A stretch of 64,000 nucleotides of DNA from Rhodopirellula bahusiensis. Lineage in GTDB: Bacteria; Planctomycetota; Planctomycetia; Pirellulales; Pirellulaceae. The notes under the pieces are model-generated. The model had not been told where the DNA came from and did no database searches. It worked only from the letters and a program-made list of their open reading frames with translations. The stretch spans positions 186,001 to 250,000 of the forward strand of contig NZ_NIZW01000001.1 in assembly GCF_002727185.1 (NCBI RefSeq), read 5' to 3'. The first letter of the stretch is position 1, and each line of letters opens with the position of its first letter. Shown one piece after another: positions 21,980-48,002 of this stretch. Both the position numbers and the translations under genes were made by a program.

Positions 21980-22053
21980 GGCGCGGTAGCTCAATTGGTT
22001 AGAGCCCCGGACTGTCGATCCGGAGGTTGCGGGTTCGAGTCCCGTCCGCGTCG
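21980..22053 (+). tRNA. tRNA-Asp (anticodon GUC)
   Basis: The cloverleaf folds completely: acceptor GGCGCGG with CCGCGTC (one G-U), D-stem GCTC/GAGC, anticodon stem CCGGA/TCCGG with loop CTGTCGA (anticodon GTC), T-arm GCGGG-TTCGAGT-CCCGT, discriminator G. CCA is not encoded. A run of seven T follows as a terminator. An integrase gene starts 200 bases downstream on the same strand, so this tRNA is the probable integration site of the element to its right. Confidence 0.95.
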
Positions 22054-22166
22054 CTTTTTTTACCCCGCAATTTGCTGGGTTTGTGAATTTCGGTATTCTC
22101 TCAGAGTTCGCTCTGTCCGAGAAGTTGTCCGAAAACTTTGGTATGATGACACGCGTCAGGCGGTTT

Positions 22167-23518: not shown

Positions 23519-23797
23519 CTAATCGAGCTGGATGTGCTTCAAGTTGGGGCGGAGCTTGCGGCGAGGGGATGGTGGCTGTGAGGATTCTGAACGACAACTT
23601 TGGATGTATTGGTTAATGTCGCGTGGTTGGAAGCGAATGGCTCCACGTCCGTTGCCGATCCGATACACCGGCAGCTTTCCGGATTCGACTAACTGGTAGA
23701 CCAAGCTGCTCGATACACTGAGCCATTGGGCAACATCTGTGACCGTCAGCATTCGACTCGGTTCGCTTTCGTCTTCTTTCATTGCAGGTCCGTTCAA
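23519..23797 (-). CDS. Excisionase-like HTH protein
   Basis: A 92-residue DNA-binding protein with a MerR/excisionase-type helix-turn-helix (LTVTDVAQWLSVSSSLVYQL at residues ~18-37) and the wing YRIGNGRGAIRFQPRDI. Such proteins steer integrases towards excision or repress element promoters. It is the last gene of a minus-strand set, with its ATG overlapping the stop of the methyltransferase gene (ATGA). An ATG at 23782 (MKEDES) is an alternative start. It converges on the integrase gene. Confidence 0.8.
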   Translation of the reverse strand: MNGPAMKEDESEPSRMLTVTDVAQWLSVSSSLVYQLVESGKLPVYRIGNGRGAIRFQPRDINQYIQSCRSESSQPPSPRRKLRPNLKHIQLD

Positions 23798-24357
23798 AAA
23801 AGACGTCGTTCAACTTGGTTTCCGTAGACAGTCCACTGTGTTCTGGGCTGCTCTTCGCGACCATAGAGTTCGAGGTATGGCCCCGGACTGACCCGTTCGA
23901 TTAATTCACGAACAGCGAATGGTTTTCGGCTGTGCTGCGTTCGTCGATGTAGCAGCCAACTTCGGCATGATTTGTCAGTGAATGGCAGACTGCCGCGAAC
24001 GCCAAGCAAAAGAAATTCATGCGACACTCGCCAATAGTTGCCCATGCCTAGTTGTGGTTTGATCCAAACCAAGCACGACTTGAAATTAAATCCCCACGCT
24101 TCCATGACATCGAACGCCTCGCGAAGAAATGCATTCGTCGTCCACAGGTGCAAGTGAGCATTTTCAGTGATGAGTTGCTCAACGGGTTCACCGCAAATCT
24201 CGTCGAGCTGCAAAGTTCTGTAGTGATTGTCAGCAGCACCGCGTGCTGCCTTATTGGAATATGACCAAGGTGGATCTGCGTAGACTGTGCTGAACCGATG
24301 CTGGCTTTCAATGAGCACATCGAGATTGCCAACAATGCTTGGGGCAGGGTCAATCAT
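23794..24357 (-). CDS. MT-A70 family adenine methyltransferase
   Basis: A 187-residue N6-adenine methyltransferase. The catalytic motif DPPW appears in FSTVYADPPWSYSN, followed by HLHLWTTNAFLREA, LVWIKPQLGMGNYWRVSHEFLLLG and the C-terminal LELYGREE, all MT-A70 features. It probably modifies element or host DNA, possibly against restriction; no cognate endonuclease is recognisable beside it. I chose the ATG at 24357 because it overlaps the upstream stop (ATGA). The frame extends to 24408 without further conservation. Confidence 0.85.
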   Translation of the reverse strand: MIDPAPSIVGNLDVLIESQHRFSTVYADPPWSYSNKAARGAADNHYRTLQLDEICGEPVEQLITENAHLHLWTTNAFLREAFDVMEAWGFNFKSCLVWIKPQLGMGNYWRVSHEFLLLGVRGSLPFTDKSCRSWLLHRRTQHSRKPFAVRELIERVSPGPYLELYGREEQPRTQWTVYGNQVERRLF

Positions 24358-24605
24358 TTGACGCCCTCCGTTTCTGCCGCTGAGCCGTCTTCTTGCTGGA
24401 TCATCCAAGTGTGAGCTCCGTCAAGCAGGAAGCGAACGAACGGTATGTCGTCTTGTCCGAACCGAGTAGATTCGTGCCACAAGTCACCGTTCTTGTAGAG
24501 GCGATGCAGCGAGAGCATGTGGCGAACCATGTTGCCGGACTTCGCTCGGCGTATGCGAACTACAAGCATCCCTTGCCGAATTTCGTGTACGAGTTTCGTC
24601 CTCAT
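24354..24605 (-). CDS. Small accessory protein, element family A
   Basis: An 83-residue protein with IRRAKSGNMVRHMLSLHRLY and GQDDIPFVRFLLDGAHTWM. The layout (short beta strands, then x-R-L-Y-x-x-G-x-x-W/Y, then DD and a helix) is shared with the product of 25541-25795, so the two look like diverged paralogues. Both gene ends overlap their neighbours by ATGA, indicating one translationally coupled operon. Function unknown; such proteins recur in integrative elements. Confidence 0.6.
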   Translation of the reverse strand: MRTKLVHEIRQGMLVVRIRRAKSGNMVRHMLSLHRLYKNGDLWHESTRFGQDDIPFVRFLLDGAHTWMIQQEDGSAAETEGVK

Positions 24606-32255: not shown

Positions 32256-32356
32256 CTCCGGGAATGTCATCCGACCCGGAGTGACAGAATTATTGGCGAC
32301 CTTCGGTTCACGCTAAATTCAAGCTGGTGCAATCTGCGAACAAGTTGGTTGCACCA
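32256..32356. promoter_or_regulatory. Two dyads in a divergent promoter
   Basis: The gap between the minus-strand operon and the HTH-pseudokinase gene holds CTCCGGG-N12-CCCGGAG (32256-32281) and TGGTGCAA-N16-TTGCACCA (32325-32356). Their position, and the XRE-type HTH encoded next door, make them candidate operators. Confidence 0.45.
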
Positions 32357-32372
32357 CAAACCAAGGTGGCCA

Positions 32373-33407
32373 ATGACCAACGCAGGACCGAAACACGGAC
32401 GGACGGTTTCAATCAACGTCTCGAAGCTGACAGCCGCGATGAATCATCGCGGTCTGAGCGTTGAACAATTGAAAGAGCTTGCTGACGTTTCGACGGGGAC
32501 AGTCAACAATCTGCTCGCCGGAAAATCCGTTTACCGGACAACGGCGTCGCAGGTGGCCGCCGCACTTGGGACAACACTCGACGTGTTGATGAACGCGTCG
32601 ACTCCCATTGGAGGCGCATCGACAGTTCACGAATATCTGGTGTCCGATGTTCTGTCGGATTGGATCACGGCGTCGAATGGATTGAAATTCCAGCTTTGCC
32701 GTCTTCGGCATTTGGAACTAGATCGTCAGGCACGCGGGAAACGTTTTGACTTGCGAGACATGACCACCGATGAGGAGCAACGATGTCGTACTTGGATCAA
32801 GCGACACCCGAACGTTTGTGGCACCCTGCAAGACCATCCGAATATCGTTCGCAACCTCACGGCGTTTCACGATCCGGTCGAGAGTTTCTATTGGGTCATC
32901 GACGAATGGATTGACGGTGAACCATTGCAACGAACCTTGGGGCGGCAACCTTTTGAACCACTCGTCGTGAAAGAATTGCTGCTTGATGTGGCTCGTGGCT
33001 TACACGGGCTGCATGAGAAAGGAATTGTTCGACGCGAACTCACACCGGCAACAATTACGATTCGGAACTCGGATGGGCGGGCGATACTCACGGAGTTTGA
33101 ACTGGCCAAGCTGATTGATCGCGGACCAACGGTATCGACAGCGGAATGGCCGGTTGATCCATATCGTGCTGGGGAAGCGGATGCGGACGACGTTGATGTG
33201 CGGGCTGACATCTACAGTTGGGCGAGAATTGGCGTCCACGCCGCATTCGGCGAGTTGCCCGAAATCGGCTCAGAGAAGTCGGCATTGGAAGATACTTTGC
33301 TGCCAAGTTCGGTTCAGTCATGTCTCACGAAGGCAGCAAGTGTCTTCCGAAGCGAGCGTCATGAGTCGATGAATGAAGTCTTGCCGATCGTTGAGGTTTG
33401 GAAATGA
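32373..33407 (+). CDS. XRE-type HTH fused to a pseudokinase
   Basis: A 344-residue protein. Residues ~15-72 are an XRE/Cro-like helix-turn-helix (GLSVEQLKELADVSTGTVNN). The rest has the fold of a Ser/Thr kinase: WVIDEWIDGEPLQRTLG as hinge, LLDVARGLHGLHEKGIVRRE as the catalytic-loop region, and VRADIYSWARIGVHAAFG as helix F. Key residues are lost: HRDLKPxN is replaced by RRELTPAT, and DFG by TEF. I infer a non-catalytic sensor-repressor. The stop overlaps the next gene by ATGA. AAGG precedes the ATG. Confidence 0.8.
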   Translation: MTNAGPKHGRTVSINVSKLTAAMNHRGLSVEQLKELADVSTGTVNNLLAGKSVYRTTASQVAAALGTTLDVLMNASTPIGGASTVHEYLVSDVLSDWITASNGLKFQLCRLRHLELDRQARGKRFDLRDMTTDEEQRCRTWIKRHPNVCGTLQDHPNIVRNLTAFHDPVESFYWVIDEWIDGEPLQRTLGRQPFEPLVVKELLLDVARGLHGLHEKGIVRRELTPATITIRNSDGRAILTEFELAKLIDRGPTVSTAEWPVDPYRAGEADADDVDVRADIYSWARIGVHAAFGELPEIGSEKSALEDTLLPSSVQSCLTKAASVFRSERHESMNEVLPIVEVWK

Positions 33408-34903
33408 GCGACATAAATCCAGAGGAAGCGAACCAACTAAGAGAGGAAATCTCCGAATACCGAGCAGCGATTCAACAATTTCGGGATCTGCCTGACCCGC
33501 TTGGAAAGTTCGCGCGGACTTCAAGGTTGGTTGAGAAGGTTATTAAGACACACTTCCCTCCGGTGGAACCTGAAGTTAGTTCACTCGGAGGATTACTTCA
33601 TTCTCGAAAAGACTTTCTTGGTAAAAAGAAATTCCGAAAAGCTGCCTTCGCGATCGACATTCGCAATTTAGAACTCCACTACGATCCGGATCGGGAGGCC
33701 ACGGAAGCGGACGCGAACAAGGCGACGCGCATTCTATTCGAGATCATCGAATTACATTGCAAGGAGTTGGAGAAAGGGCTACCCAGAACGACGGAAGCCA
33801 TCGATCCGGCGGAAACGCGGCAATTCCCAACCACGACACGAGCCACGCTGCCGTTGCCGGAGCTAGTAGCGTACGCGACACGAATCGAACGCAAGTCACC
33901 ACCGATGCTTGATGCGGATGAAGCCGATCCGCATGTGACGGCATCAACGCTTGCAGAGTACACGTTTTGTCCACGCGCCGGTGTGCTGACGCACGAGGGT
34001 AGTTTTTCTGATCCGGAAGAGGAACTCCCATCCCTTGCTCTGCTTCCTTGGTACGAGCAGGCAGCCATCGAAGAAGCTTACACGCATGCCCTCTATGTTC
34101 TGTTTGCCTTCCCGGTGGGGTTGGTGGCGGCGGTTGTCATTCTGTCATTGATGTTGCTTGGGAATCCAGTCTATCCCCTCCTGCTGATCGGATTGGTATT
34201 GGGATGGACGATCTTTGCATGGCGGGCATTCCGACGTTGGCGAGAGATTGGTAACCGAAGACTTGCCGCCCAGCTCGCAAACGAGTGTAACCCTGTTCCG
34301 GGAAAGAATACGTTCCAGCCGGTCGATTGGTGGGGGTTACTTCTCGCTGGCTATGAAGTGCGTCGCCCCCAAGCCGCATTGCATGATGAGCGCTGGAAAC
34401 TCAGCGGAAAACCGAGAAGGATTCTGGATAAGGGAACGATGAGTATCCCCGTTCATCGAATCCGAAAACCCGAAGGACCAGTGCTTCCCCAACATATTGT
34501 TCGAGTGATGGCGCACTGTCATCTGATTGAAGCCACCGAAGGTGCGAACAGCCCTTTCGGGATCGTTTTATTTGGAAACACTTATCAGGGGATGACGGTG
34601 CCAAACACGAACGAGCACCGCGAGCGATTTTACACGGCTCTTGAACGAGTTCGGGCAATGATCATCGAGTCGGATGCGGGCGAGCGTCAACCTCCCGAGC
34701 CAGTCACCGGGAATGTATGCAGTTCCTGCCACTTCGGTCACCCTCGTTCAATTGCACACGAAGACAAAACGATGCGTTACGAGGAACCACTCGACCCCGT
34801 TCTATTCCACAACGGGAAGAAGGCCTTCCACTGCGACTGCGGAGACCGATTCAATTGGAAACCCAAGCATGACCGCAATCGGAAAATGCGTCGGCTTGAA
34901 TAG
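33404..34903 (+). CDS. HEPN / membrane / Cas4-like fusion protein
   Basis: A 499-residue protein of unusual build. Residues ~10-125 look like a HEPN (DUF4145-like) domain, with the R-x4-H motif in IDIRNLELHYDPDRE (Arg87, His92). A Cas4/DUF83-like region starts at VTASTLAEYTFCPRAGVL (Cys189), is interrupted by two transmembrane helices (~229-277), resumes at LSGKPRRILDKGTMSIPVHR and ends at Cys439/Cys442 (CSSC) and Cys477/Cys479 (HCDC). The nuclease residues expected in GKxD and (V)E(V)K are replaced. It is coupled to the pseudokinase gene (ATGA). I infer an effector of a defence or toxin-antitoxin-like module. Confidence 0.7.
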   Translation: MSDINPEEANQLREEISEYRAAIQQFRDLPDPLGKFARTSRLVEKVIKTHFPPVEPEVSSLGGLLHSRKDFLGKKKFRKAAFAIDIRNLELHYDPDREATEADANKATRILFEIIELHCKELEKGLPRTTEAIDPAETRQFPTTTRATLPLPELVAYATRIERKSPPMLDADEADPHVTASTLAEYTFCPRAGVLTHEGSFSDPEEELPSLALLPWYEQAAIEEAYTHALYVLFAFPVGLVAAVVILSLMLLGNPVYPLLLIGLVLGWTIFAWRAFRRWREIGNRRLAAQLANECNPVPGKNTFQPVDWWGLLLAGYEVRRPQAALHDERWKLSGKPRRILDKGTMSIPVHRIRKPEGPVLPQHIVRVMAHCHLIEATEGANSPFGIVLFGNTYQGMTVPNTNEHRERFYTALERVRAMIIESDAGERQPPEPVTGNVCSSCHFGHPRSIAHEDKTMRYEEPLDPVLFHNGKKAFHCDCGDRFNWKPKHDRNRKMRRLE

Positions 34904-34908
34904 TCTAA

Positions 34909-35880
34909 TCACTTCATCCTGTGTTGAATCCAGTCAGTCAGTCGACTGACGAGACTCGGCGTCGGACCATGCCGAGTCGTATGCCGAATTTCAGCCATTA
35001 CAGCGTTCCAAGTTTCTAGCCATTGACTAGATGTCTCAAAACGGTCGTCTGGTTTTATCGCCAACGAGCGGTCTAACAGGTCGTCGACCGTTTTCCAAAT
35101 CCGTTTCGGAATTTTGTCGCGTTCGGGACTGATTTCGCTAGGTGGCACCAAGCGTGACCTGGACTGAACGGAGTCAGGCAACATTCCAACTTTGCCACCA
35201 TAACCATCGTAAGGAATTCGACTGGTCAGCATTTCATACAGAACGACCCCCAGTGAAAAACAATCGGCGCGAAAGTCGACACGGCGTTGCCCCCCTAAAA
35301 GCTCCGGAGCCGAGTAAACACCGCTCGTGCCGTCTCCTTCCTCTCGTCTCGTTGTTCGCTCCACCGTCCATGCGTTACCGTAGTCAATCAGAACGAGACT
35401 GGTTCGTTTGGTGAGAATTAGGTTTGCTGGTTTGATGTCGCCGTGGACGATCTGTTTGTGGCGATGAAGGTGACGCAGTGCATGGGCCACACCTCTGACG
35501 AGACGAACGGCCTCAGGGGCAGCGATTCGGTGCCGGTTGTGATCACGGATACCGTTGAGCACAGACCTAAGATTGAAACCGTCAATCCACGGCACGACGA
35601 CGTGAACAGAATCACCGTCTTGATGGCATTCGAGAATTTGGAGGATTTCGTTGTCGCCTCGCGTGAGCCGTTGAAGCGTGCGGACTCGGTCAACGCCGCC
35701 GGACGAAGTCGGCAGGATATGCAGTGCTCGCATCTGTTTTGCACTTGGGTCGAAGACCTGAAAAGCCCGCCGTCCGGACGAGCCGATTTTAGCGACGGCA
35801 AGGTACGTGCGACCGCCGATCCGAAAGCGTTCGATAACCGGAAGCTCCGCCCCTCGATAACGGATCGGGCGATTCGGCAT
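34909..35880 (-). CDS. Ser/Thr protein kinase-like protein
   Basis: A 323-residue kinase domain protein starting MPNRPIRYRGAELPV. The catalytic loop HGDIKPANLIL (residues ~146-156), metal motif DYG (~166-168) and APE (~191-193) are intact. The glycine loop is poor, and the position of the ATP-binding Lys in V-A-x-K reads His54 (RALHIL), so catalysis is uncertain. The gene converges on the HEPN/Cas4-like gene, 5 bases away. It could phosphorylate, or sense, the products of that pair. I chose the ATG at 35880, with AAGGA upstream. Confidence 0.78.
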   Translation of the reverse strand: MPNRPIRYRGAELPVIERFRIGGRTYLAVAKIGSSGRRAFQVFDPSAKQMRALHILPTSSGGVDRVRTLQRLTRGDNEILQILECHQDGDSVHVVVPWIDGFNLRSVLNGIRDHNRHRIAAPEAVRLVRGVAHALRHLHRHKQIVHGDIKPANLILTKRTSLVLIDYGNAWTVERTTRREEGDGTSGVYSAPELLGGQRRVDFRADCFSLGVVLYEMLTSRIPYDGYGGKVGMLPDSVQSRSRLVPPSEISPERDKIPKRIWKTVDDLLDRSLAIKPDDRFETSSQWLETWNAVMAEIRHTTRHGPTPSLVSRLTDWIQHRMK

Positions 35881-35960
35881 AGGGTGAATTTCCTTCCTAG
35901 AAACGACGATGTCCAAATGACAGAGTGTAATGCAAAGTATTGCCAAACACCTGTAGCATA

Positions 35961-36660
35961 CACCTGCCGGTCGCAAGCGACCCTAAGTCGCTTGCAGACA
36001 TGGGATTCAAAGGAATCAGGAATGGAACGTCAGCGGGTCATTTGATGTTCCGGTGCAGGTGCCATTTTTCGGGGCGGCAAGCGGGCCGCGTCGCGGCCCG
36101 CCAACAACGGCGGCGAACGCCAGTGAGCCGCTGACCGCCGGAGCGTCCAGCGGAGGCGGAAGACGACCGCAGGCTGCCCCAGCAGGCTCGGTCGTGAGTC
36201 GAGCGTCCAAGCGAGACGGGCGGGCGTTCAAGCCCGCAGCGAACCGCCCCAGCGGTGAGCGTCACGGCCCGTTCAGGGCCGGTGAAGCGTTCAGCGGAAC
36301 AAAGCCGAAAGGCTGGCCCCAGCCAGCCTGAGAGGCGCAGAAGAGAGGCCCGGCTGAGGGCGCGAGTTGTGACAACTCTTTCGGAAGATAGAGCGGGCGG
36401 GCCAGTCGTCGGTTGGCACATACAAGCCGTCAGTCGGATCGACTAGCAAGGTGAGTACGTCGACTCTTCCGCGACGCGGAAAGTCGCAAGCGAGCGGCGG
36501 GGTGGGCGAAGGGGGATCTCCTGATCGCGAACGCGGTCGGGAATCACTCGTAGCCAAAGTGACCGTCGAGGTGTTCCGCAAGACGAAGTCTGCGGAAACC
36601 GAGCGGGAACCCATCTACCAGATCGCCCACCGGGCGATTCGATGTTTCCCGGATTTTTTC
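35961..36660 (+). ncRNA. Candidate large structured RNA 1
   Basis: A GC-rich, gene-free stretch with a dozen strong hairpins: 35973-35995 (9 bp), 36081-36101 (10 bp, one-base loop), 36163-36195, 36220-36237, 36243-36256, 36265-36281, 36303-36314 (GAAA tetraloop) competing with 36311-36328, 36364-36378, 36461-36486 (11 bp), 36520-36541 (9 bp with G-U pairs), 36574-36597 (10 bp) and 36622-36638. CACCTGC (35961) also pairs with GCAGGTG (36055). The G-U pairs and GAAA loop favour the plus strand, and a TTTTTT follows the last hairpin. I see no protein family in any frame. Confidence 0.5.
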
Positions 36661-36805
36661 GACATGAAAGGGGGTAATTGCGAGGTTGGCTTCGTAGGCA
36701 GCGATGAGTGGTGAAGGGGTAAACGCGAATTCCAATTGCAGGAAAAGCGACTACGGATCGGAGTCGAAGCCTGTTCCGTTCCGCAGTCGCCGTAAAGTAT
36801 GCCGG

Positions 36806-37666
36806 CTAGGCAGCAAGGTTTACATTCGGCACGGGCCGACGTTGATCGGCAGTGTCGGAACTCACTACCAATCGTGTCTCGTCGTCGAACAGACTTTTCA
36901 GAATGTCGGACGAACACTTCTGAATGCGCTGCATCGAGTCGGCGAACACTTCACTGTTGCCGTTGTGCAGGTGAATGTATTCGGCAGAGTGTTCCAAGCC
37001 CTCAACTCCCAACGCTTGGCAAACGATGTGTGCAACAGATTGTGCCTCAGTTTCTTTGACGGTGTTGGTCAAACGTTTCCGAGTTTCTTTGTCGGGATGC
37101 AGTATTTCGTGAGCGAGTTCGTGAACGAGAACTTCCAGGCGCATCGGCGGTTTCAATCCGGAAAGGACAGTGATCTTTTTCAGCGAAGAGAAACCCAAAG
37201 TCGAGCCATCGAGAACGCCATACTTCAATGCGATTCCTTTAGAAGCAATCAATCGCTCAACTGAATCAATCCAGCGTTCCACATCTCCAGCCGGTTCCGA
37301 GAACTCAGGCAATTCATCACCCTCGGTTTGGCTGAGATCGAACACGTGAACGACCCGAAAGCCGAAAACCTTCCGTTCATCGGCAGGCGAGTCTTTCTTT
37401 CTGACGGCCAGCGGCGCTGTGATTCCGATTCCCTTTTCGCCCTTCTTGACCGACCGTCCGATTGCTTTCCAACCGTGGAAGCCCAGCACTTTGGTTGCAT
37501 GCGGACATTGTTCCGCAATCAGTACGCAGTTGTTGAAACTGTATTTGTGAAATCGAGCCATCATTTTCATCACGTCTTTCAGACGGACAGTATGCCCCGC
37601 TGCCAGAGCGGTATTGAGCTGGTCGATTCCCGTTTGAACGAGCGTTTTTACTTCATCCTTTTTCAT
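36806..37666 (-). CDS. ArdC-like protein with zinc metallopeptidase motif
   Basis: A 286-residue protein resembling ArdC antirestriction/ssDNA-binding proteins. The N-terminal domain has MMARFHKYSFNNCVLIAEQC and GFHGWKAIGRSVKKGEKGI; the C-terminal domain has the metallopeptidase motif HELAHEILH, with a downstream ETEAQSVAHIVCQALG helix. On conjugative elements such proteins protect incoming DNA. The ATG at 37666 has GGAGAAG in front; upstream in-frame ATGs at 37681 and 37690 are also possible. Confidence 0.8.
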   Translation of the reverse strand: MKKDEVKTLVQTGIDQLNTALAAGHTVRLKDVMKMMARFHKYSFNNCVLIAEQCPHATKVLGFHGWKAIGRSVKKGEKGIGITAPLAVRKKDSPADERKVFGFRVVHVFDLSQTEGDELPEFSEPAGDVERWIDSVERLIASKGIALKYGVLDGSTLGFSSLKKITVLSGLKPPMRLEVLVHELAHEILHPDKETRKRLTNTVKETEAQSVAHIVCQALGVEGLEHSAEYIHLHNGNSEVFADSMQRIQKCSSDILKSLFDDETRLVVSSDTADQRRPVPNVNLAA

Positions 37667-43694: not shown

Positions 43695-44266
43695 CTATCC
43701 ACAGGTGTCGAACCCAAATTGCAAGTTGCAATCGTCACAGAGCTACGACTGAAAGTCGCTTTCCGAGCAACGCTGACTTCGGCTTTTGGTAGGCCTGATT
43801 CGCTGGACGCGAACGCTTGTAGATCGAAACACTCGCCTCCGACCACGTTTCGGCTTCACCAAGCCGAAAATTTGCAATCGTCTCTGGGTACGGTATTGAA
43901 ATTCCATTGGTTGGAAATCGGATTTCCACCATTGCTGTAAAGGACGTCAAACGCATTGCTGCGAGTGACCCGCAATTTCGGTTCGCGAGTGGTGATACGC
44001 ATGACAAACATCAGTAGGCAATCGCACCCGGTAAACTTGAATTCACCATTCAGGCTAAGGGAACAGAGTTAACCTCCTGTTACGCGGTTGGCCCGTAGAG
44101 CTGGATGCATCGAGAGGTGCTTGTCCAGTTCGACGGAGGCTTCGTCGAGTAATCCGGTTTTGTCCGCTGGCTTCGTATGCCAGTGATTTCAATTCCGAGT
44201 AATCCGACGATTCGATCCGATGCAAATCGGTCCCGCGAGGACACTGCCAGCGTCAATTGACGCTGG
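43695..44266. other. Candidate replication origin (oriV)
   Basis: A gene-free region downstream of rep. It holds a near-consensus DnaA box CTATCCACA (43695-43703), the palindrome ATTGCAA-G-TTGCAAT (43718-43732), a half site TTGCAATC (43872-43879), the 11-base direct repeat CGAGTAATCCG at 44146 and 44196, and the perfect 20-bp palindrome CCAGCGTCAATTGACGCTGG (44247-44266). The clustering, beside an initiator gene, suggests the origin. Confidence 0.45.
44247..44266. repeat. Perfect 20-bp palindrome in putative origin
   Basis: CCAGCGTCAA followed directly by its own reverse complement. It is a possible binding site for a dimeric protein, or a cruciform, about 90 bases before candidate structured RNA 2. 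Confidence 0.6.
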
Positions 44267-46704: not shown

Positions 46705-48002
46705 GGTCCATCTGGGTTTAGTGTGGGTAAAGATCTAGTCCACCGCAGTAAAAGTAGATCGCGGTCTTGAAGTTCTCGCGATTGCGATAGCCGCCGACAC
46801 GTCGCTTGATCGACATGATCTTGCTGTTCATTCCTTCGGCCACTGCGTTGGTGATGAAGTGCGTGCAGTAGCTCACGACGTTTGCTAAACGATCGCGGAT
46901 TGTCTTGGCGACCTTCTTCAGTGGCGAAAGCTTGGTGTGGATCACTCGCTTGTACCAGTCTTTGAAGTAGACGGTGGCTGAAGTCGCATCGGCATGGTGC
47001 CACAGGTCGCGAAGCATCTCCTTGTAGGCCCAAGCCTTGCCGGTCTCCAATTCCTGCGTATAGACCGCATCAAATCGCTCTCGCTGTTGTTCGCTCAGGT
47101 TCTCTTGGCCGCTTAACCACAGGTAGCGAGTGCGTGTCAATCGTTTGTCACCTACAGCGCTCAGTTTGCGATGCTCACCGCGTCGGACTTTGTCGACTGC
47201 TTCGGTAGCAAGCTTCATCACATGGAAGCGGTCATGGACGATCTTGGTTTCGGCAAGTGGAATGTTCTCTTTGGCTGACTTCACGTAGGCAGCACTCATG
47301 TCCATCGCAATCGCTTCGATACCGTCGCGTTGAGCCTGGGAAAGTTGCGAAAAACAAGCGTTCCCTGCATCGGTGTCATTCCCATCCGAAATCGCTTCGA
47401 CGGTGCTTCGATCCAGATCGTAGATGAGCGTGATGTAGTTCTGGCCTTTGCGAAAGGCTTTTTCATCAATGCCAATTCGAGGCATGACTGCATCTGTCTT
47501 CCGGGCTTTACCACGTGCCACCGCCTTCTTGAGAATGTGCCACGTTTCATCCCAACTCGTTCGAAGGATTCCAGCGGCACCTTGAACAGTCTGTGTCGCC
47601 AGCAAGACGTCGATGGAGAAACGTTCGAAGAACAATGTGAACCGACTGTTCTTCTCGGCCCAAGGGAGCTGGACTTGCTTCACACCGTGCTCAGGGCATT
47701 TCACACGTGGTGGCTTGGCGTGGAGAACCGTCCGATACTGCATCGTGTCCAGATGCCGCCAGCGTCGCTCAGAAACGTGGTCATAGCAAGCAAGTTGACG
47801 GTCGCACTCAGGGCAGCAAAACTTCGCGCCATCGGCGTGCTCAACATGAATGTCAACTTGGCCCGCTTCGGTATCAAGAGTTACATTGGCGACGATCCAA
47901 GGTGGTGTCAGGCCAAGGATCTGCTGGTAAAACTCGGTCTCGTGCATCTAGGCTCTCCTTTGTGGAGAATTTTAACCGACCCACAAAGTTCCCGGATGGA
48001 CC
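46705..48002 (-). mobile_element. ISL3-family insertion sequence
   Basis: 1,298 bases bounded by imperfect terminal inverted repeats: GGTCCATC-T-GGG, five variable bases, TGTGGGT on the left (46705-46728) and GGTCCATC-C-GGG, five variable bases, TGTGGGT read from the right end (47979-48002). One transposase gene fills it. The 8 bases outside each end (TTTAAAAA and CAAGAAAG) differ, so no target duplication is visible, which fits a deletion beside the element. Confidence 0.8.
46718..47947 (-). CDS. ISL3-family transposase
   Basis: A 409-residue DDE transposase. An N-terminal zinc-finger region (CCPECDRQLACYDH, then KCPEHG) is followed by the catalytic core: IGIDEKAFRKGQNYITLIYD with the first Asp, MDMSAAYVKSAKENIPLAET and IVHDRFHVMKLATEAVDKVR with the second, and NAVAEGMNSKIMSIKRR with the Glu. 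The frame is intact, and the stop lies within the left inverted repeat. A GGAGAGCC-type ribosome binding site precedes the ATG. Confidence 0.93.
   Translation of the reverse strand: MHETEFYQQILGLTPPWIVANVTLDTEAGQVDIHVEHADGAKFCCPECDRQLACYDHVSERRWRHLDTMQYRTVLHAKPPRVKCPEHGVKQVQLPWAEKNSRFTLFFERFSIDVLLATQTVQGAAGILRTSWDETWHILKKAVARGKARKTDAVMPRIGIDEKAFRKGQNYITLIYDLDRSTVEAISDGNDTDAGNACFSQLSQAQRDGIEAIAMDMSAAYVKSAKENIPLAETKIVHDRFHVMKLATEAVDKVRRGEHRKLSAVGDKRLTRTRYLWLSGQENLSEQQRERFDAVYTQELETGKAWAYKEMLRDLWHHADATSATVYFKDWYKRVIHTKLSPLKKVAKTIRDRLANVVSYCTHFITNAVAEGMNSKIMSIKRRVGGYRNRENFKTAIYFYCGGLDLYPH

What the first reader, a model, noticed from the sequence alone, without database searches (positions are those of the whole stretch)
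35961..36660. Candidate large structured RNA beside the kinase module
Seen: about a dozen stable hairpins in 700 gene-free bases, including 9-11 bp perfect stems, a GAAA tetraloop, G-U pairs that favour the plus strand, a closing long-range helix (35961 with 36055), two mutually exclusive hairpins (36303-36314 against 36311-36328) and a T6 run near the end. Inference: a large non-coding RNA of unknown class, possibly linked to the adjacent module or to the ArdC gene.
Basis: partly seen in the sequence, partly recalled or inferred. Interest (0 to 1): 0.7.

Follow-up and report, generated by a model that had tools for sequence, protein, structure and literature searches.

The report
Hairpin array in planctomycete mobile elements
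This stretch is a conserved, uncatalogued string of hairpins beside the DNA-transfer genes of mobile elements in planctomycete bacteria; the structure is clearly real, but whether it works as RNA or as folded single-stranded DNA is still open.

Summary
The structure is real. The core (36130-36305) has homologues across the class Planctomycetia: a covariance model hits 15 of 397 class genomes; its 3 hits among 392 phylum genomes are all in the class. On 30 aligned copies 37 of 44 pairs show changes on both sides and 95.6% of cells pair. Rfam has nothing. It is an ordered array of short hairpins with recurring GTTCA and CCCA loops and tandem G.A motifs.

The RNA reading is unsettled. G.U pairs are nearly absent (1.5% of pair cells; RNase P 11.0%, tmRNA 15.9% in the same genomes), and stems change without the usual transition bias. 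The window copy lies in a ~100-kb element integrated at tRNA-Asp. Every scorable copy is antiparallel to the relaxase-like, coupling-protein and ParB genes (20/20, 17/17, 20/20). Five loci lack the kinase and carry it beside relaxase-like genes; kinase and ArdC are optional neighbours.

I favour a strand-specific DNA hairpin array acting while the element is single-stranded (0.45) over a non-coding RNA (0.40). Neither transcription nor transfer is shown.

The parts
36130..36305 (+). Conserved hairpin-array core (model R1, 176 positions)
   Evidence: 182.1 bits, E 1.2e-50; covariation
36136..36158 (+). E1: stem with GGA/GGA internal motif, loop GTCCA
36163..36195 (+). E2: two-part stem with one unpaired C, loop CCCA; 13 of 14 pairs change on both sides somewhere
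   Evidence: helix 3
36198..36217 (+). E3: stem with GA/GA tandem motif, loop GTCCAA
36220..36237 (+). E4: stem, loop GTTCAA
36243..36256 (+). E5: stem, loop CCCA
36265..36281 (+). E6: stem, loop GTTCA
36282..36300 (+). E7: stem with GAA/GGA motif, loop GTTCA
36311..36328 (+). E8: stem, loop CCCA, in long copies of the closest relatives
   Evidence: compensatory change in L029/L030
35973..35995 (+). 5' hairpin shared with close relatives only
36467..36481 (+). 3'-part hairpin TTCCGC..GCGGAA, present in the long copies
36520..36541 (+). 3'-part hairpin with two T.G pairs, kept in shape in long copies
34909..35883 (-). Protein kinase gene, divergent from the array (optional neighbour)
   Evidence: Pkinase 105.3 bits
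36806..37690 (-). ArdC-like gene, convergent (optional neighbour)
   Evidence: ArdcN 35.6 bits
31202..31837 (-). RelaxA: PF13814 (MOB_C-type relaxase domain) protein
   Evidence: 28.8 bits, cut-off 25.3; naming from PMC5357655
27816..30500 (-). TraD/TraG-type coupling protein gene
   Evidence: TraG-D_C 32.3 bits
40260..41168 (-). ParB gene
   Evidence: ParB_N 71.4 bits
22253..23422 (+). Tyrosine integrase gene of the element
   Evidence: Phage_integrase 48.4 bits
22007..22058 (.). Left end repeat in tRNA-Asp; exact 52-bp copy at G000:C1:308540-308591

Best explanation
The array is a cis-acting, strand-specific DNA element of the mobilization/partition region of planctomycete integrative elements that carry a PF13814 (MOB_C-type) relaxase and a TraD/VirD4-type coupling protein. 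When the element is single-stranded during transfer or replication, the plus strand folds into an ordered row of GTTCA- and CCCA-loop hairpins. A protein (relaxosome part, primase or RNA polymerase) reads the loops, most likely to start second-strand synthesis as a single-strand origin does, or as an accessory of oriT. Shown: the conserved structure, loops and G.A motifs on one strand, fixed orientation to transfer and partition genes, G.U avoidance, location in an integrative element. Inferred: that the folded form is DNA, which protein binds, and the role in priming or transfer.
For: Covariation. G.U 1.5% of pair cells against 11.0% (RNase P) and 15.9% (tmRNA) in the same genomes, 1.3/7.8/15.2% in short-loop hairpin helices alone. 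Transition share of Watson-Crick changes 33-38% against 53-54%. Antiparallel to RelaxA 20/20, TraD 17/17, ParB 20/20, although the HTH-kinase and Cas4-like genes have the other orientation in L041 and L139. Array 173-248 nt upstream of RelaxA in L140, L141 (nearer copy), L143, L147. All 11 array-bearing genomes in the draw have RelaxA. Element ends at a 52-bp tRNA-Asp repeat. Precedents: ICEBs1 sso1, Frpo, ArdC binds ssDNA.
Against: No transfer or ssDNA data. 23 RelaxA-bearing genomes lack the array (22 no match, G842 24.5 bits), so it is no universal oriT. In G592 the array and RelaxA are on different contigs. The 3' part shows 6.4% G.U and 69% transitions, more like RNA. Orientation is partly inherited synteny, so the counts are not independent. 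The G.U share of known ssDNA elements was not measured here. No T4SS gene was recognised among the ten proteins scanned from the rest of the element.
Confidence: 0.45

Rival explanations
1. A structured non-coding RNA, transcribed from the plus strand divergently from the kinase or relaxase gene, which acts as RNA for the mobile element: in mobilization, or in control of the neighbouring operon.
For: Strong fold and covariation, RNA fold more strand-biased than DNA fold; G.U 17 against A.C 6 points weakly to the plus strand; divergent 5' neighbour in 26 of 28 and convergent 3' neighbour in 25 of 28, as for a separate transcription unit; RNA-like 3' part; precedent of sgm-sRNA at the mobilization module of SGI1.
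Against: G.U depletion and lack of transition bias. No promoter-like or terminator-like site. In L033, L136, L137, L138 the core ends 27-28 nt from the ParB stop, leaving little room for a terminator.
Confidence: 0.4
2. A double-stranded site: protein-bound palindromes or supercoil-driven cruciforms, for partition or relaxosome assembly.
For: Near-perfect Watson-Crick palindromes; next to ParB or the relaxase genes in many loci.
Against: Loop sequences and tandem G.A motifs are conserved on one strand, which a duplex site does not need; 176-nt ordered array is long for such a site.
Confidence: 0.1
3. A REP-like or IS200-like dispersed hairpin element riding on the mobile element.
For: Two copies in L041, L141, L146, L148; one weak Y1_Tnp-like gene 2 kb away in L112 (E 0.0094).
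Against: At most 4 copies per genome; no GTTCA-loop hairpin further than 600 nt from a core in 424 kb; the Y1-like gene is in one locus only; fixed order of hairpins.
Confidence: 0.05

Closest known systems
Single-strand origin sso1 of ICEBs1 (PMC4595007, passages)
   Same: Stem-loops on one strand of an integrative element near transfer genes; fixed orientation
   Different: Three stem-loops in sso1, related to plasmid sso; here an ordered row of at least seven with two loop kinds; no sequence comparison was made and no priming shown
Frpo single-stranded promoters (PMC9849209, passages)
   Same: Folded ssDNA in a transfer region, near anti-defence genes in some plasmids; ArdC is a neighbour in part of our loci
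   Different: Frpo forms a stem-loop carrying -10 and -35 boxes; none was looked for in the folded form here, and ArdC is convergent, not downstream
STAXI motif RF01728 (PMC2864571, passages)
   Same: Repeated structures near antirestriction and integrase genes; the authors weighed ssDNA against RNA
   Different: Repeated pseudoknots with UUCG loops in Enterobacteriales; no Rfam match here
sgm-sRNA of Salmonella genomic island 1 (PMC9299015, abstract and passages)
   Same: Structured region in the mobilization module of an integrative element
   Different: Transcribed, 3' end of a longer transcript, tyrosine-recombinase-type mobilization proteins; no sequence comparison made
GOLLD, ROOL, OLE RNAs (PMC12286853, abstract and passages)
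   Same: Large structured elements, two of them on phages or prophages
   Different: No Rfam match here; they are found near tRNA islands or in Bacillota; G.U not compared
Rhodopirellula-1 motif (PMC2864571, one table row)
   Same: Listed for Planctomycetes and Proteobacteria as an ambiguous candidate
   Different: Its alignment could not be seen, so identity cannot be tested

Membership tests
Rfam 15 families (including STAXI, GOLLD, ROOL, OLE) | Score at or above a family's gathering score | tested here: not met
   No match in the region; best sub-threshold match in 35700-36900 is SNORD94 at 20.3 of 60 bits. That the named families are in Rfam is from papers or recall
Structured RNA in general | Compensatory changes in stems | tested here: met
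   (ssDNA would show them too)
Structured RNA in general | G.U accepted as a pair | tested here: not met
   1.5% against 11.0% and 15.9% in RNase P and tmRNA; 3' part 6.4%
Structured RNA in general | A transcript | not testable with these tools
   no expression data; no promoter or terminator consensus
Single-strand origin (sso) | Stem-loops in one strand, fixed orientation in the element | tested here: met
   orientation relative to the transferred strand unknown
Single-strand origin (sso) | Converts ssDNA to dsDNA | not testable with these tools
   needs a plasmid assay
oriT of a MOB_C element | Lies next to the relaxase gene | tested here: inconclusive
   173-248 nt in four loci, 3.6-7 kb away in others; absent from 23 RelaxA-bearing genomes, one weak match apart
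oriT of a MOB_C element | nic site | not testable with these tools
   none
Frpo-type single-stranded promoter | -10 and -35 boxes formed in the folded strand | not tested
   only a linear scan was run
sgm-sRNA of SGI1 | Processed RNA needed for mobilization | not testable with these tools
   none
REP/IS200-like hairpins | Dispersed copies with a Y1 transposase | tested here: not met
Rhodopirellula-1 motif | Match to its published alignment | not testable with these tools
   only a table row is held

The most novel reading that the evidence does not exclude
A new kind of DNA-transfer element: an ordered code of GTTCA- and CCCA-loop hairpins, read as folded single-stranded DNA by a planctomycete protein, conserved across a bacterial class and recognisable by its near-total rejection of G.U pairs.
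Probability: 0.3. Interest if true: 0.8.

Novelty: new variant of a known kind. Interest (0 to 1): 0.62.

Why it matters
A class-wide, covarying hairpin array beside relaxase genes gives a concrete handle on how mobile DNA moves or replicates in planctomycetes. It also makes testable whether G.U depletion and missing transition bias in an alignment can tell folded DNA from folded RNA, a doubt the STAXI authors raised for their own motif (PMC2864571).

Tried and rejected
Led nowhere: blastn of the region against plasmids and phages (no match); a hairpin pattern in viral contigs (none; one match, L108, whose surroundings look like packed genes with no array; dropped). G145/L027 matched a pattern but shows no array around it (dropped). 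Of the six short blastn hits L011-L016, five (L012-L016) were read and dropped as chance; L011 is a true distant copy. My first alignment had two sequences on the wrong strand and was redone. L150 (28.1 bits) and L153 (24.5 bits) look decayed or doubtful; L150 is in A6 and but was left out and of the unsupervised set. L142 lies at a contig end and has no scorable neighbour.

Controls: RNase P used 15 of the 16 matches (L162, 535 nt, left out). tmRNA used the 13 matches above cut-off; one search cut one of them (L215) at the wrong place, so its tmRNA figures are void and were redone. Pair counts on A6 lean towards the model by construction. A5 is a plain MAFFT alignment, but the structure counted on it was drawn by me from the same sequences. 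Helix E5 is misaligned in A5 (51.4% of its cells paired).

Considered and rejected: a protein-coding explanation (single-base length differences); membership in an Rfam family; an RNA of the kinase module as the general case (kinase-free copies). Not in print as far as searched: open PMC library only. A structure prediction of RelaxA was unfinished and is not used.

Full report
OBSERVATION. The region 35961-36660 folds much better than shuffled sequence: as RNA z is -8.49 on the plus and -3.63 on the minus strand, as DNA -7.63 and -5.55. Rfam has no match in it at the gathering score and only weak chance-level ones below it. A promoter/terminator consensus scan is empty.

HOMOLOGUES. BLAST finds a second copy in the same genome and copies in relatives. 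A scan of named genomes with the neighbouring kinase brought 80 loci; a nucleotide profile from four copies then found the array upstream of the kinase in ten of the 27 upstream pieces searched. From 14 copies I built model R1 of the 176-nt core. R1 hits 15 of 397 genomes of the class at E <= 1e-4, 23 places, up to four in one genome, and 3 of 392 genomes drawn from the phylum, all three in the class. In 15 chosen genomes (own, 12 of the same genus, two known carriers) it hits 4, one of them weakly at 24.5 bits.

STRUCTURE. On the plain MAFFT alignment of 14 copies 90.5% of cells pair, 22 of 44 pairs have a change on both sides, and the covariation score is 0.260 against 0.098 in shuffles and at most 0.110 when partners are slid. 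On 30 copies aligned to the model 95.6% of cells pair, 37 of 44 pairs have a change on both sides, and the score is 0.523 against 0.130 in shuffles and at most 0.067 when slid. The usual order is E1 (GTTCA-type loop), E2 (CCCA), E3 (six-base loop), E4 (GTTCA type), E5 (CCCA type), E6 and E7 (GTTCA type); L149 lacks E3 and E4. E1, E3 and E7 hold G.A-rich motifs on the plus strand; in L141, L140 and L020 some of these are replaced by Watson-Crick pairs. In 424 kb of sequence holding the copies, 30 of 62 perfect hairpins with five-base loops inside the array regions have the loop GTTCA read on the array strand, and 25 of 62 with four-base loops have CCCA; no GTTCA-loop hairpin lies further than 600 nt from a core.

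RNA OR DNA. G.U cells are 17 of 1226 on the model alignment, A.C 6, and 17 of 1103 on an unsupervised alignment and fold. RNase P of the same genomes gives 176 of 1604 and tmRNA 150 of 945, treated the same way. In short-loop hairpin helices alone the shares are 1.3%, 7.8% and 15.2%. Among differences between Watson-Crick pairs, transitions are 33% (model) or 38% (unsupervised) against 54% in RNase P and 53% in tmRNA. The stems behave as if G.U were a mismatch, which I read as a constraint on DNA complementarity. Against this, the 3' part of 11 long copies has 29 G.U in 450 cells and 69% transitions, though also 9 A.C and a less certain alignment.

CONTEXT. The window copy lies between a kinase gene and an ArdC-like gene, in an element with an integrase, a PF13814 protein, a TraD-type coupling protein, ParB and ParA-like and Rep-like genes (names of the last two are mine from sequence, not from a family match). 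A 52-bp tRNA-Asp repeat recurs 100.6 kb away, so the element is integrative. PF13814 is the MOB_C relaxase domain according to PMC5357655 (passages); 8 of 13 RelaxA proteins match it. Over 29 copies the array is antiparallel to RelaxA in 20 of 20, to TraD in 17 of 17 and to ParB in 20 of 20 scorable cases. Its 5' neighbour is divergent in 26 of 28 and its 3' neighbour convergent in 25 of 28. L140, L141, L143, L147 and L149 show no kinase cassette, and RelaxA or RelaxB is the 5' neighbour. L112 lies beside an MT-A70 gene; RelaxA of that genome is on another contig.

CO-OCCURRENCE. RelaxA was found in 34 of 337 class genomes, 11 of them array carriers. The other four carriers are not in the list of matches; BLAST shows RelaxA in the held stretch beside their arrays. 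The 23 RelaxA-bearing genomes without a listed R1 match were searched with the refined model: 22 gave nothing and G842 a weak 24.5 bits. The array goes with these elements but not with every RelaxA system.

READING. Single-strand structures in transfer regions are known: the orientation-specific sso1 of ICEBs1 (PMC4595007, passages) and Frpo promoters active on entering ssDNA (PMC9849209, passages); ArdC binds ssDNA and is needed in recipients (PMC7213743, abstract). The RNA alternative has a precedent too, sgm-sRNA of SGI1 (PMC9299015, abstract and passages). I favour folded single-stranded DNA at 0.45 over RNA at 0.40. The structure and its conservation are shown; its chemical form and function are not.

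Noticed in passing
window 22007-22058 and G000:C1:308540-308591: Exact 52-bp repeat of the tRNA-Asp 3' part bounds an integrative element of about 100.6 kb; the window ends inside it. Ten proteins scanned from the rest of it showed no T4SS family.
   Followed up: partly
L017 (G000:C8:46000-63000): A second, related element with its own array, ArdC, kinase, ParA, ParB and Rep-like genes in the same genome.
   Followed up: partly
window 35937-35968; L034 and relatives about 200 nt 5' of the core: Repeated ACACCTG words in the window, and in L033, L034, L032, L044, L053 an ACGTGTT...AACACGT-like inverted repeat near the kinase start; possibly an operator or partition site.
   Followed up: no
window 32349-35883: Cassette of an HTH-kinase, a protein with weak Cas4-like similarity (best E 1.1e-7) and a second kinase, kept together in many loci.
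   Followed up: no
window 44096-44208: Group II intron match barely above the Rfam gathering score (40.1 against 40).
   Followed up: no
window 23794-24408 and 46718-47947: MT-A70 methylase and ISL3-family transposase genes in the element; MT-A70 domains also near the array in L112 and L141 and a related protein in L142.
   Followed up: no
L141 6834-7271: Two array copies in direct tandem, about 90 nt apart between cores.
   Followed up: no
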